A stretch of 64,000 bases of DNA from Nitrospira sp. ND1 (lineage in GTDB: Bacteria > Nitrospirota > Nitrospiria > Nitrospirales > Nitrospiraceae), in NCBI RefSeq assembly GCF_900170025.1, contig NZ_FWEX01000006.1, positions 1,024,795 to 1,088,794 of the forward strand, given 5' to 3'. Positions 37,998 through 59,912 of the stretch are shown piece by piece. Made by a program: the position numbers and the translations under genes. The notes below the pieces were generated by a model. The model was not told the DNA's origin, did not search any database, and was given only the letters and a program-made list of their open reading frames with translations. The first letter of the stretch is position 1. Each line of letters opens with the position of its first letter.

Positions 37998-39206
37998 TTA
38001 CCGTAGATGTAATGCTTCGAGCAGCAGGTCGTTGACCGACGCCTTGAGGCGCTTCTTCGCATCGGGCAAGAATTGTACGGCTGTGGTACGTCCCTGCAGA
38101 ACTTCGAAATAGGACTGCACCACATCCTGGTAGCGTCGGAGAAGCCTGAAGCCGAGTCGGGGGAAGGCATAAATGACCCGGGCGATTCTGGCCGTGACTC
38201 GAAAATCCGGGAGAATGTCACGCTCCAACGCTGCCTCGTAGGCGGCGAGCGACTCACGGGGGTCATGAACGTTCCCCAAAATCGACCGGGCTGCGAGCTG
38301 GCCTGAACGAACCGCGTAATAAATGCCTTCGCCAAACAGCGGGTCGACTAAGTGACCGGCATCACCCACCAATGCTGCTCGACCATTGACGAATCGAGAG
38401 CCTCTTCCGTCTCCATGCCCGCCTTCGGCATCTGAATAGGCGGGAATCGGATGGCCAACCGGACGAGGCACTGTCCAGCCGGACAGCCCCCGCGCTTCGC
38501 TGACAAACCGATCGAAGGTCGTGCGCAAACCGCTCGATTTGCGACGAAACTCTCCTACCCCCACAGACACGCCATTCTTTTTGGGGAAAATCCATCCGTA
38601 CCCCTGACGGGCGGCCCCCACATCCACAAGGATGGTGGTCGCGCTCGGATAGTGTCGGCTATTCCCGAGCCGCACCTCGCTTTCAAGTGCCGGCGCCCGA
38701 TACAGGGAGCGGTTGGGAAACAGCTGCCGCGCAACCAGACTATTGGCGCCATCCGCACCGATCACCATCTTTGCGCGATACCGTCCCTCCTGCGTCACCA
38801 CCTCCACACCATCGGAATCCTGAGTGACCTCGACCACCCCCTCACCGGTCCGGAACTCGGTTCCGGCTTCAATCGCTTGTTGCACAAGGTAGTGATCGAA
38901 ACGATCGCGCATGACCATGTAGGCGATCGGTTGAGAGGATTCAATGAGCAGCGGATCCTGCCCACGATAGACAAACTGGACGCCATTGACCGTCTGTTCA
39001 ACAACCGATTTGAAGCCGGGCTCTAAGAGCAGGTCGATGCGCGCCGAGAGCCCACCGCCGCACACCTTGTACCGGGGATGGACGTCCTTGTCGAAACCGA
39101 GCACCGTCAAGCCCCCGCGACAGAGAGCCGCAGCAGCAACCGCTCCTGCCGGCCCCATTCCGACAATAATCACATCGTAGGTTGTGGCCAATTGCCTATC
39201 AGCCAT
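37998..39206 (-). CDS. Geranylgeranyl reductase family FAD-dependent oxidoreductase
   Basis: 402 residues. N-terminal FAD-binding VIIVGMGPAGAVAAAAL, then YKVCGGGLSARI and the second FAD motif ALVGDAGHLVDPLFGEGIYYAVRSG, all typical of the GGR family. These enzymes reduce prenyl double bonds in quinone side chains or isoprenoid lipids. The C-terminal part (LPDFRVTARIARVIYAFPRLGF) is also family-like. Substrate is not known; the many isoprenoid genes in the window fit the assignment. Confidence 0.83.
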   Translation of the reverse strand: MADRQLATTYDVIIVGMGPAGAVAAAALCRGGLTVLGFDKDVHPRYKVCGGGLSARIDLLLEPGFKSVVEQTVNGVQFVYRGQDPLLIESSQPIAYMVMRDRFDHYLVQQAIEAGTEFRTGEGVVEVTQDSDGVEVVTQEGRYRAKMVIGADGANSLVARQLFPNRSLYRAPALESEVRLGNSRHYPSATTILVDVGAARQGYGWIFPKKNGVSVGVGEFRRKSSGLRTTFDRFVSEARGLSGWTVPRPVGHPIPAYSDAEGGHGDGRGSRFVNGRAALVGDAGHLVDPLFGEGIYYAVRSGQLAARSILGNVHDPRESLAAYEAALERDILPDFRVTARIARVIYAFPRLGFRLLRRYQDVVQSYFEVLQGRTTAVQFLPDAKKRLKASVNDLLLEALHLR

Positions 39207-39325
39207 GTCTCAGCTCCCAGTTGAAGGACACAGAGCTCCGACCTGGCCTTGGCCAAGGGTAGACCACGCACTGTAACGCAGGCGTCAGGGGGGAGCCCGA
39301 TAGGAAAGGGAAAGACAGGCCGGAG

Positions 39326-40072
39326 TTACTGACCGAGGTACCAGCCGATCCCATAGCGTTCGAGAAAGCTCGTGATCATGGTCAGCGAATTGGCATAGAT
39401 CATCACACCCACCACGATGAGCAACACCCCGCTCACCGTCGACACACCCCAGAGATATGCGCGCACTTCTTTAAAGTAACTGAGAAATCGATCGACGCCG
39501 AGCGCGGTGAGAAACAGCGGTAGGGCTAACCCCAGCGAATAAAACGTGAGCAATACCACACCACTGAGCATCGATTCTGTCGTACTGGCATAGAGCAGGA
39601 TCGTCCCCAGGACAGGTCCCACGCAGGGAGTCCAGCCTGCAGCAAACGCGATGCCGATCAGGAACGAACCCAGAAACCCGGCCGGTCGGTTTCGGAATTG
39701 ATACCGGTGCTCCATTTTCAAAAAGTTTAAATTCAAGATACCGAGGAGATAGAGGCCGAAGATAATCACGACGATGCCTCCGAACCGGCGCAGATGCTCC
39801 TGGTAGGTAATCAACGCCTGGCCCAAGAGGCTGGCCGATGCCCCGAACGCGACAAACACCGTCGAAAACCCAGCGATGAACAGCAGGGAATTCAAAATGA
39901 TCGCTTTCCGGAAGCGATTCCGTTCAGAGACGTCCGTGAGCTGTTCGATCGAGAGCCCGGTAATGTAGGAAATGTACGAGGGGACGAGCGGCAGCACACA
40001 GGGCGACACGAACGACAGCAGCCCGGCGGAGAATGCGGCAACCAATGAAATCGATTGCACCGAATCGGTCAT
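39326..40072 (-). CDS. ccdA: Cytochrome c biogenesis thiol transporter CcdA
   Basis: 248 residues with six membrane helices. The two redox cysteines are in FVSPCVLPLVPSYI and AAGWTPCVGPVLG. CcdA carries reducing equivalents across the inner membrane to keep apocytochrome c haem-binding thiols reduced. Last gene of the resB-ccsA-thioredoxin-thioredoxin-ccdA run, two bases after the previous stop. Confidence 0.95.
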   Translation of the reverse strand: MTDSVQSISLVAAFSAGLLSFVSPCVLPLVPSYISYITGLSIEQLTDVSERNRFRKAIILNSLLFIAGFSTVFVAFGASASLLGQALITYQEHLRRFGGIVVIIFGLYLLGILNLNFLKMEHRYQFRNRPAGFLGSFLIGIAFAAGWTPCVGPVLGTILLYASTTESMLSGVVLLTFYSLGLALPLFLTALGVDRFLSYFKEVRAYLWGVSTVSGVLLIVVGVMIYANSLTMITSFLERYGIGWYLGQ

Positions 40073-40074
40073 GG

Positions 40075-40641
40075 TTAGGACCCCTGCAACAGCGATTCAA
40101 CCAGGCGCTTCCCCGCAGGGGCGCTCCAGTCTCTGGCCCCTGGAATCCGATTGCGAATGATGCCCTTGCGATCGATCAGAAACGTCATGGGGAGCTGGCG
40201 TGCGCCATACTGAAGCCCGATGCGAAAATCGGCGTCGTGGAGCACGGGGAAAGTAAAGCCGACTTCCCGCTGAAAGGGACGGGTCACCGCTGCGCCCTGG
40301 GCGTCGGTCGAGACCGCGAGAATCTCAAAGTCCTTGCGGCTGAAGCTTCGATACAGTCGCTCCATCGCCGGCATCTCGATTTTGCAAGGCCCGCACCAGG
40401 TCGCCCAGAAATTCAAGAGCACAACTTTCCCTCGGAACTGATCGAGCGTGACGTTGAACCCCTCGGAGTCCCGAAGGAGGAAGTTCGGAGCCTCCTCATC
40501 GACCTGAGGAATGCGCTCGACGACAAGCATCGGCACAGCCGGCGAGGAAGGCAATGCTCCGCGAGCGTCAGCAGAAAACCCTCCACAGAGCATCATGACC
40601 GCACCGGCCATAGATAATATTGAGCAGCGCGTCATCATCAC
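40075..40641 (-). CDS. Periplasmic TlpA/ResA-like thioredoxin, second copy
   Basis: 188 residues: a signal sequence (first 28 residues) and a redoxin domain with active site WATWCGPCK. Likely receives electrons from CcdA and reduces apocytochrome c thiols. It is the second of two adjacent thioredoxin-like genes; this one uses the CGPC motif and is probably secreted. Confidence 0.9.
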   Translation of the reverse strand: MMMTRCSILSMAGAVMMLCGGFSADARGALPSSPAVPMLVVERIPQVDEEAPNFLLRDSEGFNVTLDQFRGKVVLLNFWATWCGPCKIEMPAMERLYRSFSRKDFEILAVSTDAQGAAVTRPFQREVGFTFPVLHDADFRIGLQYGARQLPMTFLIDRKGIIRNRIPGARDWSAPAGKRLVESLLQGS

Positions 40642-40643
40642 CG

Positions 40644-41267
40644 TTACGACGTTGGCAGCGCCTGAGTAGGGGTCGCATGGGCGGCCTTCTCCGCAGGCTT
40701 GAGAAGTTGGGTCAACACCTTAAGATTATCCAGTCGTGTCCAATCCCGAGGCCCGATCACTTTTTCACGCAGGACACCCTGCTGATCAATGATGTAGGTT
40801 TCGGGGACACCCATCAATTTGTAGCGCTTGTCGGTCTGGCCCCAGGAATCAACCAGTACGGGAAACGTGAGGTTCAAGCCCTTCACGAACGGAGGTATTT
40901 CTTTCTTCGTCGTCACCCGGTCGATGCTGACCGCGAGAATCACCAACCCGTCCTTTTCAAAATTCTTGTACAAAACCTCCATCGAAGGCATTTCCTCACG
41001 GCACGGCTTGCACCAGGTCGCCCAGAAATTCAAAAAGACCACTTTGCCGCGATAGTCCGATAACCGCAGCTGCTTCTCGTTTAAGTCGGGCAATTGAAAA
41101 TCCGGTGCCTCTTTTCCCACCACCAATGGTTCGTACTTGGAACTCTGTAGCCAGACTACGAGAAACATCACGCCCAGAATGGCCGCAGCGGCTATTACCA
41201 CCAGGGTACGGGACGGGCCGGTTCGCGGCGCAGTGTTGGCAGGGCTCTGGTTGATTGGATCTGTCAT
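40644..41267 (-). CDS. resA: Membrane-anchored ResA-like thiol-disulfide oxidoreductase
   Basis: 207 residues with an N-terminal anchor (TLVVIAAAAILGVMFLVVWLQ) and a redoxin domain with WATWCKPCR. It keeps the CxxCH thiols of apocytochromes c reduced in system II maturation. It lies three bases after ccsA and two bases before the second thioredoxin gene. Pairing of CKPC here and CGPC in its neighbour suggests different redox tasks. Confidence 0.9.
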   Translation of the reverse strand: MTDPINQSPANTAPRTGPSRTLVVIAAAAILGVMFLVVWLQSSKYEPLVVGKEAPDFQLPDLNEKQLRLSDYRGKVVFLNFWATWCKPCREEMPSMEVLYKNFEKDGLVILAVSIDRVTTKKEIPPFVKGLNLTFPVLVDSWGQTDKRYKLMGVPETYIIDQQGVLREKVIGPRDWTRLDNLKVLTQLLKPAEKAAHATPTQALPTS

Positions 41268-41270
41268 GGT

Positions 41271-42185
41271 CTAGGCGTAGGCATGCAGACCGGAGAGCAG
41301 AAAATTCACTCCCCAGAAACAGAAAATGACCATGAGCAAACCAAAGATCGCGTAGATCGCCGCTTTATGGCCTTCCCACCCCCGCGTCATGCGAGCATGG
41401 ATATAGGCGCCATAGATCAGCCATACGATCAACGACCAGGTCTCCTTGGGATCCCAACTCCAGTACCCGCCCCAGGCATAGTTCGCCCACATTGCTCCGA
41501 GGATGATCCCGAAGGCCAGCAGCGGAAACCCCAGCATGATCGCCTTATAGCCAAGCTCATCGATGGTTTCGAGATCGGGAAAGGCGGCATAAAACCGCGA
41601 CTGACTGCCACGATTGACCGCCCGTTCTTTGAAGAGATACATCAGGCCCAATCCACCGGCCATGGCAAACGCCGCGTAGCTGGTCAACGTGACGGAGACA
41701 TGGATGTAGATCCAGTAGCTGTTCAGGGCCGGAACGAGCGGCTCTGCCGTCTGGTATCGATAGGGCAAGAGCGACGCGGCGCCCATGGCAATAAACCCGA
41801 TTCCCACCACAAAGGCACCGACGGCCTTAATCCTGTAGCGGAATTCGAGAAGCACGTAGCCCAAGATAATGGCCCAGGACACATAGGCCATTGCCTCGAA
41901 CTGGTTTGACCAGGGCGCGAAGGTGCCTGAATGTTCCATTCGCTCAAATGCCCGCGTCGTGAGCGCCAAGGTGTTCAGCACCCACCCGAAGACGGTCACA
42001 AGGGTTGCGACCTGTCCCAATTGCGTGGCCCAAGCACCATCACGTTCTTCAAGGTCCTCAATCGGATGCCCGGCTGGAACCATCTGCATGGCAGGACGTT
42101 TTGCGAACAGATAGGCCACATACAACCCTAACGCGGCTAAATACAACCAGAACGTCATATCGAATAGGAACAGTGATCGCATCAT
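41271..42185 (-). CDS. ccsA: Cytochrome c synthase subunit CcsA/ResC
   Basis: 304 residues, about eight membrane helices, with the haem-handling Trp-rich motif WGGYWSWDPKETWSLIVW. With ResB it forms the system II haem lyase that moves haem to the periplasm and attaches it to CxxCH motifs. ACGGAGGT precedes the ATG at 42185. Confidence 0.95.
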   Translation of the reverse strand: MMRSLFLFDMTFWLYLAALGLYVAYLFAKRPAMQMVPAGHPIEDLEERDGAWATQLGQVATLVTVFGWVLNTLALTTRAFERMEHSGTFAPWSNQFEAMAYVSWAIILGYVLLEFRYRIKAVGAFVVGIGFIAMGAASLLPYRYQTAEPLVPALNSYWIYIHVSVTLTSYAAFAMAGGLGLMYLFKERAVNRGSQSRFYAAFPDLETIDELGYKAIMLGFPLLAFGIILGAMWANYAWGGYWSWDPKETWSLIVWLIYGAYIHARMTRGWEGHKAAIYAIFGLLMVIFCFWGVNFLLSGLHAYA

Positions 42186-42268
42186 ACGGACCTCCGTCTG
42201 TCTATCCTAGCGTGCAGCGCAGACCGAATGAAACGTTGCTCTCGGTCGCGCGGCAGCGATCTTCAGGA

Positions 42269-43699
42269 TTAGGCCTGAGCGTTAATTTTTTCCGTCAACT
42301 TCCTGAACTCTTTTTGGAAATCGATCTGGCTTTTGTGCGTTGTTCCGCCAAGATGGAGCGTCACACCGGACTCGCCGGGAATGATCTTCGCCCATAACCG
42401 CCGATGATAAATCAGCGACGACAGAGTCATGCCCACCACCAGCATCGTACACCCGATCCAGACCATATTGATGCCAGGATTTCTGGCAATCTGCAGCCCG
42501 GTGAACTTCTTCGGCTGATATCCGATGAATTCGAATTGGTATGCGGAGTCCTTGATCTCGAAGAGGTCGGGATAATGATAGAACACCCAGGGAGTGGACT
42601 GTACGCTACTCCGCTCATCAACCGCCAACCGAATCGCGGGATTGGCATGCTCCGCGGTTTTTGAAAACACCTTCTTCTCGGTCGAATTAAACGCGAAGTC
42701 GGCCACAAAATCCGTCATCTTCATCTTCAATGGAAGGCCGTCGACGGCTTTTTCCTTATTCCACTCCAGATCGACCGTAGCGATAATCTTGTCGCTGCCC
42801 TTCTCCTTAATGTTGATTCGAGCCGCCTCGATCTGATCCCACGCATCCCCATAGCTGGATTGGTAAAACCAGATCCCTTTGTAGACCAAGGGATCGTTCA
42901 CCGTAATCGTCTTGGTTGTAGTGGGAGTACCCTGATCGATCACGGTCAAGGTGCTGTTGTAGGACTTTACCGATCCGTTCTCATGGTAGTCGATCCAGAA
43001 CTTATCGACACGAAGATCGAAGTTGCCACGCGGGATGTGGTAGGTCTGCCCTTCGAGGCACACCCCGAACTCCTGAAATCCATAATAGCTACCCAGTAGC
43101 CCCCCGAGCACGATGACCGTGGCGCTGAGGTGGGCCACATGCGCGCCGACCCGGCCCATAATCCCCTTGGTGGCGTAGACCGTCACCTCGCCGGGATCGC
43201 TCTTGGCCAGCACCCGATAACCTTTTTCAGCGAAGAGCTTTACAAGTCGCTCAGCCACAGCGTCTCTCGATTGATTGAGTGAGAGGGTGGTCTGCTGCTT
43301 CATCCCCTGGATAAAGGCCAACGACACACTGACCTTATCCTGACGCATGGACCGCCATACACTGGGAAACCGTTTATGGAAACAAGTGAGAGAATTGACG
43401 CACAGGAGCCCCAGCAGACTGGTAAACCACCAGGTGTGATAGACATCGGTGAAACCCAATCGCAGGAACCAGCGATAGGCTTCTTCTCCATATTCCTGCA
43501 CATAGGTTTCCGGGCGTTCGCCCTGCTGAATGACCGTGCCGATCGTCGCAGTCATGGCGAGCACAATGAACAGAAACATCGCCAGCTTGATCGAAGCAAA
43601 AAAATCCACGACCTCGCGTGAAAACTCCTCCCAGCCAAGGCCGGAGGTGCGCGGAGCGGATGCGCTCACATCGGATGCTGCATCGGGTTTATCGTTCAT
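42269..43699 (-). CDS. resB: Cytochrome c synthase subunit ResB/Ccs1
   Basis: 476 residues: three N-terminal membrane helices (DFFASIKLAMFLFIVLAMTA and others), a large periplasmic domain, and a C-terminal helix (GINMVWIGCTMLVVGMTLSSLIYHRRLW). DVYHTWWF and GAHVAHLSATVIVLGGLLG are ResB-family sequences. It heads the system II cassette, needed in Nitrospira for its many c-type cytochromes. Confidence 0.94.
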   Translation of the reverse strand: MNDKPDAASDVSASAPRTSGLGWEEFSREVVDFFASIKLAMFLFIVLAMTATIGTVIQQGERPETYVQEYGEEAYRWFLRLGFTDVYHTWWFTSLLGLLCVNSLTCFHKRFPSVWRSMRQDKVSVSLAFIQGMKQQTTLSLNQSRDAVAERLVKLFAEKGYRVLAKSDPGEVTVYATKGIMGRVGAHVAHLSATVIVLGGLLGSYYGFQEFGVCLEGQTYHIPRGNFDLRVDKFWIDYHENGSVKSYNSTLTVIDQGTPTTTKTITVNDPLVYKGIWFYQSSYGDAWDQIEAARINIKEKGSDKIIATVDLEWNKEKAVDGLPLKMKMTDFVADFAFNSTEKKVFSKTAEHANPAIRLAVDERSSVQSTPWVFYHYPDLFEIKDSAYQFEFIGYQPKKFTGLQIARNPGINMVWIGCTMLVVGMTLSSLIYHRRLWAKIIPGESGVTLHLGGTTHKSQIDFQKEFRKLTEKINAQA

Positions 43700-46935: not shown

Positions 46936-48570
46936 CTAACGTGAATTGACCATGGGAAGTTCGCGAGATCCTTCGGCCTCCTGCTGAATCCGCTGACGCT
47001 CGGCTTTCGACTCTTCCAACACACTGTGCAGTAACTCATCGCTCAGCTGGGTCAATTGCGCTGCAGCGTCTTTCATCTCCGCATGCTCCACCGCCCGCGA
47101 CAATACTTCGGCCTTTGTCGCCCCCTTCTTCTGGCCCAAGAAGGGCTTGATGATGAGATAGGCCACGTCACGGAACGGCATGAAACGCAAGAATCGGCGC
47201 AGCAGCTTGAAGGTCTGAATCGGGTATCGGGTGAGCTTATAAATAAACAGCTTCTTCAGCCCCTCTTGGCGAACTGAATTAATGACTGCCCCCGGCAAAC
47301 AGGTCGGATCAATCTCCGAACACTTAAAATACTTGTACCAATCCTTGGCGTCGCTCACCAATCCACGCTTGATATATTCCTGCCACAGAGGCGTGCCCCG
47401 ATAGACGCACAGCCGATTGAATCCAAACGTGTCCAAAGGCAATTTCGAGGCGAAATCAAACGTCTTCTGCATGTCCTCGACGGTTTCGTCGGGATTGCCC
47501 ACCGTAAAGAAACCGTGAACGATTTCGATCCCTGCCTTCTTGGCGTTTCTAACCGCGGTCTCAACCTCGGCGAGCGTCTGCTCCTTCTGGAGGCGATCCA
47601 GAATTTTCTGGCTGCCGCTTTCGATGCCGAACATCACCGTCCTGCAATGCGCCTGAGCCATGGCAGGGAAGAGGTGCTGGGCCACGGAATCAACCCGGCC
47701 TTCGATTCCCCATTGGATTGTCAGCTTCGCATCGATGATCCCTTTACAAATCGCATCGATCCGCTTCGGCTGCAGTAAAAAGTGATCATCGACGAAATAG
47801 ACAGATCCGTACCCATTCGCCTCGAGGTACTTCAGCTCATCAACGACGTGCTGCGCGCTACGCGCCCGCCACTTCCCCTCGTTGAAAATCGGGATGTCAC
47901 AGAAGACACAGGGCCACGGACAGCCCCGCGAAGTCTGCATGGTCGTAAATCGCTCCATCGACAACACCGCCGGCACGTCCAACGGCATCGACTCGACAAA
48001 GTCTAATTCCAGGCTTTCCCGGTCAGGAAATGGCCACTGATCCAAGTGGCGCTCCATCGTCCTGTTGGGGTTATTGATCACCTTGCCGTCTTTCGCCCAA
48101 GTGACACCGCCCACCTCTTGCGGATCCTCAAGACGATCGAGCAAATCAAGCAACAACTGCTCCCCGTCTCCTCGACACACAAAGTCGATTTCTGGACACT
48201 GGAGCTTCACCAAACCCGCGTTGAGACTGGCAAATACTCCGCCGAAGGCCAGCTTGACGGTACTATCGGCCGCTCGAATCTGACGAGCTAGAATTTTGGC
48301 ATAGGGATAGCTGGTGGTACTGAGGAAACTAAGACCAACCAAGGCCGGCTTCCGCCGTTTGATCTCCTCGATAATGAACTCATTCGGGGTCTCAGGATGC
48401 GCCTGATCGAACATCACACATTCATGGCCCGACCGCTTCAATACCGACGACAATGACATAATGCCGATGGGCGGAAACCCCATGACCCGGATACGCCCGT
48501 TCTTAGCTCGCGTCTTCGCCGGAAGGGCATAAAACTGGGGATCGCGCACATGTATCAGAAACACCAGCAT
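46936..48570 (-). CDS. B12-binding-type radical SAM enzyme of unknown substrate
   Basis: 544 residues. Residues 1-150 form a cobalamin-binding-like Rossmann domain, though the usual DxHxxG ligand motif is not evident. The radical SAM core has the [4Fe-4S] motif SRGCPWPCVFCDIP (C217, C221, C224; CxxxCxxC) and the GIESGS and GFFTVGNPDET barrel motifs. The C-terminal 140 residues are helical. This architecture covers BchE-like cyclases, hopanoid and lipid methylases and methylthiotransferase-like enzymes. Substrate unknown. It lies just beyond the terminator of the rTCA run on the same strand. Confidence 0.82.
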   Translation of the reverse strand: MLVFLIHVRDPQFYALPAKTRAKNGRIRVMGFPPIGIMSLSSVLKRSGHECVMFDQAHPETPNEFIIEEIKRRKPALVGLSFLSTTSYPYAKILARQIRAADSTVKLAFGGVFASLNAGLVKLQCPEIDFVCRGDGEQLLLDLLDRLEDPQEVGGVTWAKDGKVINNPNRTMERHLDQWPFPDRESLELDFVESMPLDVPAVLSMERFTTMQTSRGCPWPCVFCDIPIFNEGKWRARSAQHVVDELKYLEANGYGSVYFVDDHFLLQPKRIDAICKGIIDAKLTIQWGIEGRVDSVAQHLFPAMAQAHCRTVMFGIESGSQKILDRLQKEQTLAEVETAVRNAKKAGIEIVHGFFTVGNPDETVEDMQKTFDFASKLPLDTFGFNRLCVYRGTPLWQEYIKRGLVSDAKDWYKYFKCSEIDPTCLPGAVINSVRQEGLKKLFIYKLTRYPIQTFKLLRRFLRFMPFRDVAYLIIKPFLGQKKGATKAEVLSRAVEHAEMKDAAAQLTQLSDELLHSVLEESKAERQRIQQEAEGSRELPMVNSR

Positions 48571-48859: not shown

Positions 48860-49732
48860 CTAGCGACCGAGCGCCGCCTTCACGGCATGGCCGATCTCAG
48901 CGGGATTCTTCACGACTCGTACACCAGCAGCTTCTAGCGCCTTCATTTTTTCCGTCGCCGTCCCTTTGCCGCCTGAAATGATGGCACCCGCATGCCCCAT
49001 CCGACGCCCTGGCGGCGCCGTGATCCCGGCAATGAAACTAATCACTGGCTTCTTGACGTGCTTCTTAATATATTCGGCCGCCTTCTCTTCCGCATCGCCA
49101 CCGATTTCGCCGATCATCACGACAGCCTGTGTTTCAGAATCCTTCTCGAACAAGGGCAAGACATCCACGAATCCCGTGCCGTTGACGGGATCACCGCCGA
49201 TTCCCACACAGGTCGTTTCTCCGAGCCCCAACGTCGACAGTTGATGAACGGCCTCATACGTCAGGGTGCCGCTGCGTGATACTACGCCAACTACACCACG
49301 TTTATGGATGAAGCCGGGCATGATGCCGATCTTGGCTTCATCGACTGTGATGACGCCTGGGCAATTGGGACCGATTAATCGGACATCACGTCCATGCAGC
49401 GCACGTTTCACCTTCACCATATCGTTCACGGGAATGCCTTCGGTGATGCAGATAATCAGTTTAACACCTGCATCAGCAGCTTCCAGGATCGCATCCGCAC
49501 AAAATGGCGGCGGCACAAAGATCAAAGAGGTATCGCAGTCGGTCTTCTTCACAGCATCGGCCACGGTGTTGAAGACGGGGATGCCCTCAACTTCCTGCCC
49601 GGCCTTGCCAGGTGTCACCCCGGCGACCATCTTCGTGCCATACGCTTTGCATTGCGTCGCGTGAAAGGACCCTTCCTTCCCTGTGATCCCCTGCACTACC
49701 ACTCGCGTATTCTTATTGACGAGAATGCTCAC
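48860..49732 (-). CDS. sucD: Succinyl-CoA synthetase, alpha subunit
   Basis: 290 residues from the GTG at 49732 (AAGGAG upstream); the frame runs farther 5' into sucC. CoA-binding N-terminal domain ([20 protein letters not shown]) and the phosphohistidine in [11 protein letters not shown]. In rTCA direction it makes succinyl-CoA from succinate and ATP. Its N terminus resembles that of AclA in the same gene run, as expected since citrate lyase evolved from this family. Confidence 0.96.
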
Positions 49733-49743
49733 GGTCTTCTCCT

Positions 49744-50922
49744 TTACGCCGCCTTGCCGGTCAGCTTCACAATTTTCTGCGCCGCTTCCCACAGATCATT
49801 GGCAACCTCCAACTTGAGGCCGGACTCCGCCAATAGTTTGCGGCCTTCATCTGCATTCGTACCTTGGAGACGCACCACTAATGGAACGGTAATCTTCACT
49901 TCCTTGGCAGCTTCGATCACACCATGCGCAATGCGCTCACATCGTACGATGCCACCGAAGATATTGATAAAGATGCCCTTCACGTTCGGGTCCTTGAGCA
50001 GAATCCGGAATCCGGCTGCCACCGTGTCCTTCGTGGCTCCGCCGCCCACATCCAGGAAGTTCGCCGGCTCGCTACCCGCCAGCTTGATGACGTCCATAGT
50101 GGCCATCGCAAGACCGGCGCCGTTCACCATACAGCCGATGTTGCCGTCAAGCTTGACATAATTCAGATTGTTCGCCGTCGCTTCGATTTCCAGCGGATCC
50201 TCTTCATTGAGGTCCCGCATGTTCTGAACATCGTCATGTTTAAAAATGCCGTTGTCGTCAAATGAGACCTTGCCGTCCAATGCCACCAAGGTTTTCTCCT
50301 TGGTGATAATCAACGGATTGATTTCAACGAGCGCCGCGTGTTTTTCCATGAATAGGCGATAGAGATTGCCGAGCATCTGCACGAAGGGATTGATGACAGC
50401 AGGTTCCATCGTCTGCAAGCCCAATGCAAAAGCGACGTTTCGCCCATTGTGCCCCTGAAATCCAACGGCGGGATCGACCGCTTCCTTAATAATCTTCTCC
50501 GGAGTCTTTTCAGCCACCTCTTCGATTTCCATCCCGCCTTCGGTGCTGGCGATAAACGTCGGCCAACCGGTGTCGCGATCAACAAGAATGCTCAGATATA
50601 ACTCTTTCGCAATATTGGCGCCCTCTTCGAGCAACAGCCGATGAACCTTCCTCCCCTTCGGTCCAGTCTGGTGCGTGATCAAGGTCTTGCCGATCAACTC
50701 CTTGGCGATTCCTGCAACAGCCCCCTTCTCCTTCGTAATTTTGACGCCGCCGGCCTTTCCACGCCCACCCGCATGGATTTGAGCTTTCACCACGAAGACC
50801 GGCGTATTCAGTTCACTTGCCCAGGCAGTGGCGGCCTCGGGTGAGGTAATTTCCTTGCCCCGTGGCACCGGAACCCCGAACTGTGCGAACAATTGCTTGG
50901 CCTGAAATTCATGAACGTTCAT
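49744..50922 (-). CDS. sucC: Succinyl-CoA synthetase, beta subunit
   Basis: 392 residues. ATP-grasp domain starting [22 protein letters not shown], with [18 protein letters not shown] and a C-terminal CoA-ligase domain ([22 protein letters not shown]). Full length. Lies 85 bases after frdA and 11 bases before sucD. Confidence 0.96.
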
Positions 50923-51007: not shown

Positions 51008-52609
51008 TCAGCCATTCGCCGTACGCTCTGGTTCTTTTCGCGTATAGGCGGGGAGAATCATCGGAGAGATCACACCGCTGGAGCTGCCGTGCTGCTTGGC
51101 CTCCGCTCGGAATCGTCGCAGATGTTGGAGCGTGAGCTTCCCTTGTGGCATGGATCCGGCGCGCGATGCCGCTGTCAACCCTGAGCGCTTTCCAAACACC
51201 ATGAGGTCCAGTAGCGAATTCCCCATCAATCGATTTCGTCCGTGCAATCCCCCAGAAGCTTCTCCGGCAACGAAGAGATTCTTCACATTGGTTTCCGAGT
51301 TTGCATCGATCTTCACTCCGCCGTTCTGATAGTGCAACGTCGGATAAATGAGGACGGGATCCTTGCTGATGTCAATACCGAATCGCTCAAACTGCATCAT
51401 CATGGCAGGAAAATGCTTTTCCACCGTTCCCGGCCCATGCTCTGCATCAAGCAACGGCGTATCCAACCAAACACCGACACGACCGGACATGGTGCGAATA
51501 CCACGGCCCTCCTCACACTCACGAATAATGGAGGAGGAGACGACATCACGGGTATCAAGCTCATTCACAAATCGCTCACCTTTGGCGTTCACCAGATGGC
51601 CGCCCTCCGACCTGATACCCTCTGTAACCAAGGCGCCGATCAATTGCTCGGGATAGACCGCGCCTGACGGGTGATACTGGAACGTATCGATGTGATCGAG
51701 CTTCGCGCCCATCCGGTAGGAGAGGCACAAACCGTCGCCCGTCGCGCCATAATGGTTGCTAGTGGGAAATCCTTGAATATGCAGCCGGCCGATACCACCG
51801 GTCGCGAGAATCACAGACTTCGCAGCCACAACCACCTGCCTGTGATTGTCGAGATCCTTAAAGATCGCCCCCGTGCAATGGCCGTGGTCATCACTGAGCA
51901 ACTCCACTGCGGCGCAGAATTCGAGAAGTTGGATCTTTTGATTCAGCACCTCGTCTTTGAGGACTCGCATGATCTCTAGGCCAGTGTAGTCTGAGCAAGT
52001 CAGAAGACGTGGCTTAGAGCTCCCCCCCCCCTTCTTGACGTGCAGATTGCCATCGGCCTGCCGATCAAAAAGCACGCCCAGTTCAATTAACCACTTGGCT
52101 ATGGAAGGCCCATCCTCGACCATGACCTTGAGTAATTCGTGGTCGTTCTGCATATGGCCACCCTTGAGTGTGTCAAGGAAATGGGTGACCGGAGAATCTT
52201 CTGGCGCAACGGAAATCTGCATCCCGCCTTGAGCCATCACACTATTGGAGTCTCCAAGTCGCAGCTTCGTGGCAAGAATCACCTTCGCGCCGGTACCGTG
52301 GGCATGCAACGCTGCCGCACACCCAGCACCGCCGCCGCCGACGACCAAAACATCCGTTGTGTAGTGTGGGGTCAGATCAATATTCTCAGCGATTGAGCTA
52401 TCACCTTCGAGAAGGGCAGCGAGTTCAACGACCGTCTTGTCGTTCGCGTTCGGGCCAAATCGAATCGGACGATAGGCGCTGGTACGGTAATCAGGATGAT
52501 ACTTATGGATCAGCTGGTCGCGATCGGCAGGGGAGAACTTCGGGATAGTCTGTTTACGGCGAGCGTCCCGAGTCTGGTGGACAATCTGTTGGAGTGCGTG
52601 AATATCCAT
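51008..52609 (-). CDS. frdA: Fumarate reductase/succinate dehydrogenase flavoprotein, non-covalent-FAD type
   Basis: 533 residues from the ATG at 52609; a GTG at 52672 would add 21 residues, and neither start has a strong ribosome site. An unusual N-terminal stretch of about 85 residues precedes the FAD motif VLVVGGGGAGCAAALHA. The position of the His that binds FAD covalently in most SdhA/FrdA proteins is N122 (DSNSVMAQGG). Active-site regions QYHPSGA, LVTEGIRSEGG and LHYQNGG and the C-terminal GNSLLDLMVFGKRSG are present. No membrane anchor gene is nearby, so a soluble enzyme reducing fumarate in the rTCA cycle is likely. Confidence 0.85.
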   Translation of the reverse strand: MDIHALQQIVHQTRDARRKQTIPKFSPADRDQLIHKYHPDYRTSAYRPIRFGPNANDKTVVELAALLEGDSSIAENIDLTPHYTTDVLVVGGGGAGCAAALHAHGTGAKVILATKLRLGDSNSVMAQGGMQISVAPEDSPVTHFLDTLKGGHMQNDHELLKVMVEDGPSIAKWLIELGVLFDRQADGNLHVKKGGGSSKPRLLTCSDYTGLEIMRVLKDEVLNQKIQLLEFCAAVELLSDDHGHCTGAIFKDLDNHRQVVVAAKSVILATGGIGRLHIQGFPTSNHYGATGDGLCLSYRMGAKLDHIDTFQYHPSGAVYPEQLIGALVTEGIRSEGGHLVNAKGERFVNELDTRDVVSSSIIRECEEGRGIRTMSGRVGVWLDTPLLDAEHGPGTVEKHFPAMMMQFERFGIDISKDPVLIYPTLHYQNGGVKIDANSETNVKNLFVAGEASGGLHGRNRLMGNSLLDLMVFGKRSGLTAASRAGSMPQGKLTLQHLRRFRAEAKQHGSSSGVISPMILPAYTRKEPERTANG

Positions 52610-52678
52610 GGTTTCACTTTCAGCACGGAGCACAGTCTTCGGACATATCTGCCCGAGACCGGCGGACGGCACGAGGCA

Positions 52679-53389
52679 TTACTTCACTGTCGCGCAGTGG
52701 TCGGCCAGCTCCTGTTCGTTCATTGCGAGCACTTTGTTCCATTCATCGTTGAAACGGCCGTCTTGAATTTCCTTGATACGGATATCCAGCCCCTGCGGCT
52801 TCTCTGTGAAATGAGCACCTTGCGCCCGGCTCACGTACAGGGCGACCAGATTGGGGGCGATGTCGGCAATACACACCGGTGTGCACATCCCACACATGAC
52901 GCAATCCATGAACATCTCGGAGACGCTCTTGAAATCACCGAACACTGCCTTCCACACCCCTTCACGCACATCGATCTTCTGAGGGCACGCCTCCGTACAG
53001 GCATTGCAATTGCGGCAAAGCGGCGCTTCCGGATAGAGATTGAAGAGGTCTTGCTTCGGATCTTTGAGCGACTGGATGTCGTACAGAGCCTTACGAGCGG
53101 GAAACGGCGGCATGATGGTGAAAGACATGCCATCTTCTACAGCCATCTGGCAGGCCAAGCAGGTCCGGACCTTGGGATCATCCTTGGTTCGATAGTAGGT
53201 CGCGCAGGCTCCGCAGAATCCGCCGAGGCAGCCAGCTCCACGCACTACTTCCTGGCCCGTATGCCACAATGCCTTGATGACGGTGATACCTTCCGGCACT
53301 TCATACTTCTTACCGGAGATTTCAATCGTCACCATTTTGTGGCGCAACACTTCTGGCTGGTCGATCACGTTGGTGTCTTCTTGTGCCAT
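52679..53389 (-). CDS. frdB: Fumarate reductase/succinate dehydrogenase iron-sulfur subunit
   Basis: 236 residues. An N-terminal plant-type [2Fe-2S] domain (CLGGFCGACATYY...C) is followed by two complete CxxCxxCxxxC motifs, CRNCNACTEACP and CVMCGMCTPVC. Two full four-Cys motifs resemble TfrB/HdrC-type subunits more than classic SdhB. Lies 69 bases upstream of frdA and 84 after idh. Confidence 0.88.
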   Translation of the reverse strand: MAQEDTNVIDQPEVLRHKMVTIEISGKKYEVPEGITVIKALWHTGQEVVRGAGCLGGFCGACATYYRTKDDPKVRTCLACQMAVEDGMSFTIMPPFPARKALYDIQSLKDPKQDLFNLYPEAPLCRNCNACTEACPQKIDVREGVWKAVFGDFKSVSEMFMDCVMCGMCTPVCIADIAPNLVALYVSRAQGAHFTEKPQGLDIRIKEIQDGRFNDEWNKVLAMNEQELADHCATVK

Positions 53390-53473: not shown

Positions 53474-55723
<2,250 letters not shown>

Positions 55724-58091: not shown

Positions 58092-59912
58092 TTACTTCAA
58101 TGGCGGAACTTCCCGCCGCTTCGGTGCCGCATAATTCACAAGGTAGTCGAATAAACGGATCAGCCGGCTATCCTGGCGTTTTTGATCAACCCAGTGGCCG
58201 ATCAATCCGATCGTCCGCGAGAGAATGAAGAACCCGTTCAAGCTATCGACAGGGAATCCGATATCGACCAGTACGGCCGCCATGGTCCCATCGACGTTCA
58301 GAATCAGATTATCCTTTTTCACGGAGGTAATTTTCTCCACCTCCAGTGCGAAGTCCAGGCATGGTGTCTTAATATTCAAGCTCTTCACGTACCCAACCAA
58401 TTCCTTCACTCGCTTGTCCGGGTTGCGCAAACTCTTCACGCGATGACCAATTCCTGGAACCGGCCCATGGTTTTTCTTCATGTAGGCCAAGAATTCGTCG
58501 ACCGACATCTTGTTATCGACAGCATACTTAAAGAACCGCCCGGCATCAGTAACCGCACCGCCGAAGCGCGGACCAATCATAATCATGCCCGCGGCAACTG
58601 ATTGCGACAGCCCGATCCCGGCACAAGCCGCAAGGATTGTCGCGTATGCTCCGCTCACACAAGGGCCGTGATCAGCGGAAAGCATCATGATGCGCTTAAT
58701 GATTTCGGCTTCCTGTTTCGAGATCAGCCGCTTGTCCCACAAAAGACCGATAACATGAGGAATTTCGTAGCCTTTGTTGATGAGCTCAGAGGCAGGATAA
58801 CCGTCGTAGCAGGGCTCATCGCCGCGGTCATCGCTGATGGTCGTACGGATCAGCGGCGAGACCATGACCTCGTCAGCCTTCATCGCCTCTTCGATGGTTT
58901 TTGGCAACCGGGGCAACGTAGCCGGCTCGACCGGTTCCTTGATCTGGCCTGACTTCAAGAGATCTTGATAGGTTTCCTTGATGGCAGGACCAAGGGCGCC
59001 AAAAGTGGGCGGCACGAGGGCGCCGGCTTTCTTCAGCGCATCGGACTTGGAGCGAGCTGATCCTTCACCCTTCATCCCCTCTTTCGCGCCGGCATGACCG
59101 AACTTCATCCCCTTCGGCAAACTCTCCTGACAAAATCCGGAGACCACGGCAATCAACTTCACCCGGCGCTTTTTCGCGCCATACCATTCTGCAGCCCGCT
59201 CTTCGAGATCACCGCCCATTTCGCCGACGATGACAACCGCCTTCGTTTGCGGATCGTTTTCGAACATCTCGAGATAACTGACATAATCGGTTCCAGGATA
59301 GGCATCGCCGCCAATACCGATGGCCGTCGTGATCCCGTCGGCAAACTGAGAGCAGATCCAGATGATTTCGTTCGAGAGACCGCCGGACTTGGTGATGACA
59401 CCGAACGATCCTTCGCGATAAAGCTTGGATAGAACAAGATTGTCGAACGCACCGCCAATCACGCCAAGCCGGCATGCTCCGGCGGAGATGATGCCAATGG
59501 ATGAGGGACCGTTAAAGACCTTCCCCAACTTGCGCGCATGAGCGCCAAGAATCTTGGCATCTTTTTCCGGCACGCCCTCGGTGATCATTGAGACCACCTT
59601 GATATGAGAATCGTCCAGCGCCTCAATACCGCCCTTCATCGCACGGTCTGCGCCAATGTACACGAGACTGGTATTCAGGGTCGGATGGTGCTTGGTGGCT
59701 TCAGCAATGGACTTGTAGACCGGAATGGCGATCAGACCGCTGCCGTATGGGATCTCATTGCTCTTGCCGGCATCGGGTGGATAGACAAACGCCTCAACGT
59801 TGAGCGGACGTTTAATGAGATAACAGAACTCGGCCATGCGGCGGGCAGCGTTGACACCGGCTTGACCACCCTGGATCACCACACGGGTGTCTTTGTTTGC
59901 CAGAATACTCAT
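58092..59912 (-). CDS. aclA: ATP-citrate lyase, alpha subunit
   Basis: 606 residues. The N-terminal 300 are SucD-like (MSILANKDTRVVIQGGQAGVN; phosphohistidine in KFGHAGAKEG). The C-terminal 260 form the citrate-synthase-like lyase domain (MMLSADHGPCVSGAYATI, PGIGHRVKSLRNPDKRV). With AclB it splits citrate into oxaloacetate and acetyl-CoA, the diagnostic step of the reductive TCA cycle. AAGGGGAGA precedes the ATG. Located 42 bases after aclB. Confidence 0.97.
   Translation of the reverse strand: MSILANKDTRVVIQGGQAGVNAARRMAEFCYLIKRPLNVEAFVYPPDAGKSNEIPYGSGLIAIPVYKSIAEATKHHPTLNTSLVYIGADRAMKGGIEALDDSHIKVVSMITEGVPEKDAKILGAHARKLGKVFNGPSSIGIISAGACRLGVIGGAFDNLVLSKLYREGSFGVITKSGGLSNEIIWICSQFADGITTAIGIGGDAYPGTDYVSYLEMFENDPQTKAVVIVGEMGGDLEERAAEWYGAKKRRVKLIAVVSGFCQESLPKGMKFGHAGAKEGMKGEGSARSKSDALKKAGALVPPTFGALGPAIKETYQDLLKSGQIKEPVEPATLPRLPKTIEEAMKADEVMVSPLIRTTISDDRGDEPCYDGYPASELINKGYEIPHVIGLLWDKRLISKQEAEIIKRIMMLSADHGPCVSGAYATILAACAGIGLSQSVAAGMIMIGPRFGGAVTDAGRFFKYAVDNKMSVDEFLAYMKKNHGPVPGIGHRVKSLRNPDKRVKELVGYVKSLNIKTPCLDFALEVEKITSVKKDNLILNVDGTMAAVLVDIGFPVDSLNGFFILSRTIGLIGHWVDQKRQDSRLIRLFDYLVNYAAPKRREVPPLK

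What the first reader, a model, noticed from the sequence alone, without database searches (positions are those of the whole stretch)
51008..53389. Soluble-type fumarate reductase lacking the covalent-FAD His and any membrane anchor
FrdA has Asn (N122) where SdhA/FrdA have the FAD-linked His, plus an N-terminal extension of about 85 residues. FrdB has two complete four-Cys ferredoxin motifs, and no sdhC/D-like gene follows. Non-covalent flavin and no quinone anchor point to a soluble, fumarate-reducing enzyme with an electron donor other than quinol, useful in the rTCA direction.
Basis: partly seen in the sequence, partly recalled or inferred. Interest (0 to 1): 0.56.

Follow-up and report, generated by a model that had tools for sequence, protein, structure and literature searches.

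The report
Anchorless soluble fumarate reductase (Nitrospirota)
A two-protein enzyme in the carbon-fixation gene cluster of this bacterium looks like a water-soluble fumarate reductase without the usual membrane part; it belongs to a widespread but little-studied branch whose relatives sit beside NADH- and heterodisulfide-reductase-type genes, and what feeds it electrons in this group is still unknown.

Summary
FrdB-FrdA (53389-51008, minus strand) lies in a reverse-TCA operon with no room for an anchor gene. These traits define a family: Asn and six catalytic residues in 37 of 37 rows, own clade 100/100 apart from SdhA/FrdA and NadB. Other members lie beside HdrABC/FlpD and FlxAB (NADH) genes, pointing to soluble donors; FlpD is absent from 57 of 57 genomes of this order. 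A canonical SdhA, SdhB and SdhE exist elsewhere, but SdhE adjoins SdhAB in a relative without FrdA and is missing in 52 of 152 FrdA genomes of the class; FrdA tracks ATP-citrate lyase there: 152 both, 0 FrdA only, 9 lyase only. Against a purely reductive role: a succinate-dehydrogenase-like Gln, energetic cost, lyase genomes without FrdA. The two four-Cys motifs are not diagnostic. Donor unknown. Anchorless FrdAB was already reported in Leptospirillum, soluble NADH:fumarate activity in Pelotomaculum.

The parts
51008..52609 (-). frdA: flavoprotein, 533 aa from the ATG (554 aa from the upstream GTG at 52672); FAD_binding_2 only, no Succ_DH_flav_C
52364..52609 (-). N-terminal extension of frdA (residues 1-82), predicted mostly helical, pLDDT 84-92 per block of ten
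52244..52246 (-). codon of Asn122 in place of the FAD-linking His
   Evidence: position reckoned from the ATG at 52609
52679..53389 (-). frdB: 236 aa, [2Fe-2S] ligands C54/C59/C62/C80 and two CxxCxxCxxxC motifs
48860..49792 (-). sucD
49744..50922 (-). sucC
53474..55705 (-). monomeric isocitrate dehydrogenase
   Evidence: PF03971
55731..57977 (-). aconitase
58092..59912 (-). ATP-citrate lyase, CoA-ligase/citrate-synthase-like subunit
   Evidence: PF00549, PF00285
59955..61154 (-). ATP-citrate lyase, ATP-grasp/citrate-binding subunit
   Evidence: PF16114, PF24948

Best explanation
FrdAB is a cytosolic fumarate reductase for the fumarate-to-succinate step of the reverse TCA cycle. Shown by sequence: FAD domain with the whole fumarate site, no His for covalent FAD, no C-terminal complex II domain, a three-cluster FrdB, no anchor in the operon. 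Inferred: FAD is bound non-covalently, which favours fumarate reduction; electrons enter FrdB from a soluble low-potential carrier. The family's other members sit with HdrBC or with Flx (NAD(P)H) proteins; the Nitrospirota line probably first worked with FlxCBA and Nitrospirales then dropped it, so that FrdB now takes electrons from ferredoxin or from an NAD(P)H reductase encoded elsewhere. The donor is the weakest step (ferredoxin about 0.35, NAD(P)H through an unlinked protein about 0.35, other 0.3).
For: Own clade 100/100 apart from SdhA/FrdA and NadB. H, T, E, R, H, R of the E. coli site kept in 37 of 37 rows and Asn in 37 of 37. PF02910 missing; the predicted core matches flavocytochrome c3 fumarate reductase (Z 32.6, 385 aligned, rmsd 3.4) as well as E. 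coli FrdA (Z 33.4). FrdB's 4Fe-4S part best matches HdrC (Z 10.9, 87 aligned, rmsd 2.2), E. coli FrdB only Z 7.2 at rmsd 13.8. Same operon order in relatives. In the class, 152 of 152 FrdA genomes have ATP-citrate lyase. FlxCBA next to FrdBB'A-SucCD in L170 and L171; HdrB near FrdA in 46 of 80 loci, FlpD 34, HdrA 32, FlxA 27; FrdAB beside fumarase-like reading frames in L180 (by eye). SdhE missing in 52 of 152 FrdA genomes of the class and 21 of 29 outside it. In Pelotomaculum, NADH:fumarate activity is 35.7 mU/mg in the soluble fraction against 5.7 in membranes, assigned by its authors to an anchorless FrdAB beside an FrhB/4Fe-4S gene (PMC10308238, passages); L161 has a similar gene set.
Against: Gln at the E. 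coli FrdA Glu49 position, as in SdhA; 33 of 37 rows of A2 have Glu. A nitrite oxidiser would pay more for NADH or ferredoxin than for quinol (reasoning). Nine lyase-bearing genomes of the class show no full FrdA; for one of them (G039) SdhA-SdhB-SdhE are adjacent, so the cycle may run on SdhABE. SdhE co-exists with FrdA in 100 of 152. No Hdr or Flx partner is visible in this order. Nothing here measures direction or donor. Pelotomaculum Sdh2A was not compared by sequence.
Confidence: 0.66

Rival explanations
1. FrdAB is quinone-linked through a subunit encoded elsewhere (SdhE-like CCG protein or an unrecognised anchor), i.e. a trimmed type E complex II.
For: A CCG protein is in the genome and co-exists with FrdA in 100 of 152 genomes of the class. 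For Leptospirillum a type E assignment and an amphipathic orf1 as anchor were proposed in 2008 (PMC2607301, passages).
Against: SdhE is adjacent to SdhA-SdhB in a relative lacking FrdA, and SdhE is missing from 52 of 152 FrdA genomes of the class, several of them single-contig. The membrane-protein gene between the citryl-CoA-lyase-like gene and frdB in three Leptospirillum-like genomes has no counterpart in the window operon.
Confidence: 0.15
2. FrdAB works mainly as a succinate dehydrogenase (or in both directions), handing electrons to a soluble acceptor.
For: SdhA-like Gln in the FAD loop in Nitrospirales; all residues needed for either direction are present.
Against: Loss of the covalent His is expected to impair succinate oxidation (recalled from E. 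coli FrdA mutants). Operon and co-occurrence with ATP-citrate lyase point to the reductive cycle. A canonical SdhA, SdhB and SdhE are present.
Confidence: 0.15
3. The flavoprotein is an L-aspartate oxidase or another FAD oxidoreductase, as one transcriptome paper left open for a Nitrospira gene that may be the orthologue.
For: PMC6606698 (passages) reports that NITMOv2_0695 is annotated as SdhA or NadB; that it is the orthologue is my guess. NadB model 308.6 bits.
Against: Below the NadB cut-off of 452.75; the genome has a separate NadB above it (539.1); FrdA is outside the NadB branch, has an Fe-S partner gene, and a Gly where E. coli NadB has the Glu aligned with FrdA F116.
Confidence: 0.04

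Closest known systems
Putative TfrAB of the rTCA cluster of tubeworm symbionts and Thioflavicoccus (PMC6315080, PMC11636981; passages)
   Same: Two-gene putative fumarate reductase in an ATP-citrate-lyase rTCA cluster. The papers report Hdr-Flx genes interspersed, as I see around relatives such as L136 and L182.
   Different: Genomes of the window's order have no FlpD (0 of 57) and the window operon has no Hdr/Flx genes. I did not compare the symbiont proteins themselves.
frdAB of the Leptospirillum ferriphilum ccl operon (PMC2607301, PMC7084401; passages)
   Same: No anchor found by those authors; order acn-ccl-orf1-frd-sucCD-peroxiredoxin.
   Different: The 2008 paper describes FrdA in general as carrying covalent FAD and proposes type E with orf1 as anchor; the family FrdA has Asn instead of His.
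Cytoplasmic NADH-linked FrdAB (SDH2) of Pelotomaculum thermopropionicum (PMC10308238; passages)
   Same: No anchor subunit; soluble NADH:fumarate activity; next to an FrhB-like/4Fe-4S gene.
   Different: Sequence not compared here; anaerobic fermenter rather than an rTCA autotroph.
Thiol:fumarate reductase TfrAB of methanogens
   Same: Best NCBIfam model for FrdA is TfrA.
   Different: 369 bits against a cut-off of 718, matched only to model position 407 of 546. FrdB has no CCG domain; that methanogen TfrB carries one is recalled.
Flavocytochrome c3 fumarate reductase (Shewanella)
   Same: Soluble; the match ends at the chain's last residues (model to 484, chain to 568), so both lack the complex II C-terminal domain.
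   Different: No haem domain; has an Fe-S partner; TIGR01813 220.4 bits against a cut-off of 285.45.

Membership tests
Complex II (SdhAB/FrdAB of SQR/QFR) | His for 8-alpha-histidyl FAD | tested here: not met
   Asn122; 37 of 37 rows Asn
Complex II (SdhAB/FrdAB of SQR/QFR) | C-terminal domain PF02910 of the flavoprotein | tested here: not met
   not among Pfam hits of FrdA; the genome's two matches lie elsewhere
Complex II (SdhAB/FrdAB of SQR/QFR) | SdhB-type [2Fe-2S] domain PF13085 | tested here: not met
   FrdB matches Fer2_4/Fer2, not Fer2_3; the only genome match is the canonical SdhB on C5
Complex II (SdhAB/FrdAB of SQR/QFR) | catalytic dicarboxylate residues | tested here: met
   H232, T244, E245, R287, H355, R390 (E. 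coli FrdA) kept in 25 of 25 and 37 of 37
Complex II (SdhAB/FrdAB of SQR/QFR) | membrane anchor subunit | tested here: inconclusive
   none in the operon; no Sdh_cyt in the genome; SdhE present but assigned to SdhAB; FrdC/FrdD and type B anchors not searched
Thiol:fumarate reductase TfrAB | TfrA model above its cut-off | tested here: not met
   369.3 bits against 718
Thiol:fumarate reductase TfrAB | CCG domain in TfrB | tested here: not met
   no PF02754 in FrdB; the genome's CCG matches lie elsewhere
Thiol:fumarate reductase TfrAB | CoM-SH/CoB-SH as donors | not testable with these tools
   needs biochemistry
L-aspartate oxidase NadB | TIGR00551 above its cut-off | tested here: not met
   308.6 against 452.75
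Flavocytochrome c fumarate reductase | TIGR01813 above its cut-off; haem domain | tested here: not met
   220.4 against 285.45; no CxxCH motif in the translated sequence (by eye)
Anchorless Hdr/Flx-associated FrdAB family (delimited here) | Asn in the FAD loop, N-terminal extension, no PF02910, partner FrdB with two 4Fe-4S motifs | tested here: met
Anchorless Hdr/Flx-associated FrdAB family (delimited here) | linked Hdr or Flx genes (common in the family, not universal) | tested here: not met
   none in the window operon; FlpD in 0 of 57 genomes of the order
NADH-dependent FRD of Hydrogenobacter (FrdABCDE) | five subunits with an NADH module | not tested
   no sequence retrieved; a subunit list was seen only for Aquifex in PMC10052474

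The most novel reading that the evidence does not exclude
The window enzyme belongs to an undescribed family of soluble fumarate reductases built to take electrons from Hdr/Flx machinery, in which fumarate serves as the high-potential acceptor of an electron-bifurcating NADH:(ferredoxin, fumarate) complex. Nitrospirota reuse the fumarate-reducing half without bifurcation, driven by ferredoxin or NADH, so that CO2 fixation in these nitrifiers spends low-potential electrons, not quinol, at this step.
Probability: 0.3. Interest if true: 0.75.

Novelty: new variant of a known kind. Interest (0 to 1): 0.52.

Why it matters
If this is the rTCA fumarate reductase of Nitrospira-type nitrifiers, their carbon-fixation energy budget and electron-flow maps that route fumarate reduction through quinone-linked complex II need revision, and a gene annotated as SdhA or NadB gets a testable role. 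The wider family links Hdr/Flx electron bifurcation to fumarate in many uncultured anaerobes.

Tried and rejected
Considered and rejected: (a) NadB: below cut-off and outside the NadB branch. (b) Methanogen-type TfrAB: below cut-off, no CCG; TfrA itself could not be put in the tree because I had no methanogen sequence. (c) The two four-Cys motifs as a sign of a quinone-free enzyme: the canonical SdhB of this genome has the same two motifs. (d) SdhE as FrdAB's anchor. (e) An FNR-like protein as the missing NADH module: the FlxA query finds three weak partial matches in the genome and one at E 0.2 (best 33% over residues 14-223, 2.9e-15), the best in a 235-aa protein whose neighbours in the fetched stretch gave no link to FrdAB; not conclusive. 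(f) Fold of the N-terminal extension: barely covered by matches (VIA rows span 65-521); not folded alone, so nothing is claimed about it.

Limits: co-occurrence counts are over related genomes and not independent; the Fisher values (0.004 within the class, 1e-60 over 395 genomes) are not corrected for that. The phylum-wide sets used thresholds of 1e-100 (FrdA2 query, lyase query) and 1e-20 (SdhE query), so split or fragmentary genes count as absent: G020 has FrdA in two abutting pieces and is counted as lacking it. Gene counts around the 80 named loci are lower bounds because contigs end; the 80 are the best of 562 relatives, chosen by closeness to the Flx-type sequence P0003, and so over-represent that type. 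In one search my motif pattern matched only 47 of the 80 named loci; the 33 others were not counted there. In one search two of 25 chosen extra loci (L180, L110) gave no sequence by my filter and were left out; the 25 family rows counted are the window FrdA, G036 FrdA2 and 23 others. A2 holds the window FrdA and 36 proteins from 36 of the 80 named loci. The tree has long NadB branches.

Full report
What is there. On the minus strand the window encodes, in order, ATP-citrate lyase (61154-58092), aconitase (57977-55731), monomeric isocitrate dehydrogenase (55705-53474), FrdB (53389-52679), FrdA (52609-51008) and SucC-SucD (50922-48860). Gaps around frdB and frdA are 84, 69 and 85 bp and hold no anchor gene. 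The window lies in a 4.45-Mb genome. Contigs of several relatives in its phylum have the same length as named Nitrospirae/Nitrospiria records, so the phylum is Nitrospirota; the genus Nitrospira is my inference.

FrdA. Read from the ATG at 52609 it has 533 residues. The GTG upstream adds 21 residues that only near relatives share. It matches FAD_binding_2 but not Succ_DH_flav_C; the genome's two Succ_DH_flav_C matches lie in other genes, one a canonical SdhA and one NadB. In an alignment with E. coli SdhA, FrdA and NadB, 82 residues precede E. coli FrdA residue 4 and only 45 follow residue 420, against 183 in E. coli FrdA. Asn stands for the FAD-linking His in 25 of 25 family rows and 37 of 37. 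H232, T244, E245, R287, H355 and R390 (E. coli FrdA numbering) are all kept in those rows, and F116 is Gly in 25 of 25. This genome's NadB also has Asn, so Asn by itself is not diagnostic.

Phylogeny. In a careful tree of 32 proteins the FrdA family (25 rows) is one side of a 100/100 branch; SdhA/FrdA (97/97) and NadB (97/89) lie on the other. Methanogen TfrA and Hydrogenobacter FrdA could not be included. NCBIfam puts TfrA first at 369 bits, far under its cut-off of 718.

Structure. The AlphaFold2 model of FrdA (37 rows, mean pLDDT 81.4, pTM 0.87) matches E. coli FrdA (Z 33.4) and flavocytochrome c3 (Z 32.6) about equally. The extension is predicted mostly helical with pLDDT 84-92 per block of ten, but its fold was not tested. 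FrdB (mean pLDDT 79.7) has poor confidence at residues 51-58. Its 4Fe-4S part best matches HdrC (Z 10.9, rmsd 2.2, 87 aligned) and CODH, its N-terminal part matches [2Fe-2S] domains of complex I and [FeFe]-hydrogenase (Z about 8), and E. coli FrdB matches only at Z 7.2 with rmsd 13.8.

Neighbourhoods of relatives. A scan of named genomes kept the best 80 of 562 relatives, with titles from Deltaproteobacteria/Desulfobacterales, Gammaproteobacteria, Chloroflexi/Anaerolineae, Omnitrophota, Firmicutes and others. Near FrdA lie FrdB in 78 of 80, HdrB in 46, HdrC in 42, an FlxC/FrhB-like protein in 39, FlpD in 34, HdrA in 32, FlxA in 27, FlxB in 27 and SucC in 27 (Pfam on L136 confirms the CCG, 4Fe-4S, FlpD and NAD-binding domains behind these labels; the Hdr and Flx names themselves are recalled). 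Ten of the 80 also carry a canonical SdhA nearby. In Nitrospirota, L170 and L171 (two genera of one family) have FrdB-FrdB'-FrdA-SucC-SucD-FlxC-FlxB-FlxA without HdrABC, and L181-L183 have the full Hdr-Flx-FrdBA set. L180 has FrdAB next to reading frames that look like fumarase (by eye, from recall). This shows association, not function.

Co-occurrence. In the same 395 genomes of the phylum, the 163 of the class split into 152 with FrdA and ATP-citrate lyase, 0 with FrdA only, 9 with lyase only (G012, G020, G039, G045, G242, G254, G359, G401, G403; G020 has a split FrdA) and 2 with neither. Outside the class 29 have FrdA, 3 of them with this lyase, and 8 have the lyase without FrdA. In G039 (lyase, no FrdA) SdhA, SdhB and SdhE are adjacent, so SdhABE may serve there, which counts against FrdAB being indispensable.

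Anchor elsewhere? The genome has SdhB and a two-CCG SdhE-like protein 10.5 kb apart on another contig, and SdhA on the window's own contig. Sdh_cyt is not found. SdhE is found in 100 of the 152 FrdA genomes of the class and not in 52, several of them single-contig assemblies; outside the class it is missing in 21 of 29. So SdhE cannot be a general partner of FrdAB. FlpD is absent from 57 of 57 sampled genomes of the order. An FlxA query finds only weak partial matches in this genome.

Direction. The lost His favours fumarate reduction (recalled from E. coli FrdA mutants). Against this, Nitrospirales FrdA has Gln where E. coli FrdA has Glu49 and E. coli SdhA has Gln; 33 of 37 rows have Glu, and among the loci that could read no Nitrospirales window-type FrdA carries Glu. 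PMC10308238 (passages) cites this position as separating SQR from QFR types. The Gln may mean bidirectional use.

Prior work. Leptospirillum frdAB was described in 2008 with no anchor found, placed in type E, with orf1 as candidate anchor (PMC2607301, passages). L215-L217 match that operon and have a membrane-protein gene in the orf1 place. Tubeworm symbionts have putative tfrAB among Hdr-Flx genes (PMC6315080, PMC11636981, passages). Pelotomaculum has a soluble NADH:fumarate activity ascribed to an anchorless FrdAB (PMC10308238, passages). For N. moscoviensis a flavoprotein gene annotated as SdhA or NadB was expressed much more than the SDH/FRD genes (PMC6606698, passages); that it is the orthologue is my guess. 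The ten paper searches listed no paper that I saw describing the Nitrospira enzyme as an anchorless fumarate reductase; I read listings and passages, no whole paper.

Verdict. A real, conserved, anchorless FrdAB of an under-described family, most likely a soluble fumarate reductase of the rTCA cycle. Donor unknown.

Noticed in passing
L064, L065, L066, L068, L072, L075, L082 (also L170-L175, L187, L188): Two FrdB-like genes in tandem before FrdA in deeper Nitrospirota; the window genome keeps one. A lone further FrdB-like gene sits at L041 9733-10461. What the second copy does is unknown.
   Followed up: partly
window 51008-52609, residue 127: Gln instead of the Glu that 33 of 37 rows of A2 have, at the E. 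coli FrdA Glu49 position; also Gln in L158, L161 and L169.
   Followed up: partly
G012, G242, G254, G359, G401, G403: Genomes of the class with ATP-citrate lyase but no FrdA match at 1e-100; not checked whether the gene is broken, lost or in an assembly gap.
   Followed up: no
L215 7759-8367, L216 6328-6909, L217 7919-8515: Membrane-protein gene between the citryl-CoA-lyase-like gene and frdB in Leptospirillum-like genomes, probably the orf1 of PMC2607301; absent from the window operon.
   Followed up: partly
G000 contig 5 535000-554000 and contig 6 1686000-1700000: The canonical SdhA, SdhB and SdhE genes of this genome are scattered over two contigs, whereas a relative (L046) keeps them adjacent.
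   Followed up: partly
window 37998-43699: Cytochrome c maturation block: ResB-like, CcsB, two ResA/TlpA-like, DsbD-like proteins and a geranylgeranyl-reductase-family protein.
   Followed up: no
window 46936-48570: Radical SAM/B12-binding protein downstream of sucD, kept next to the operon in G001, G023 and G163.
   Followed up: no
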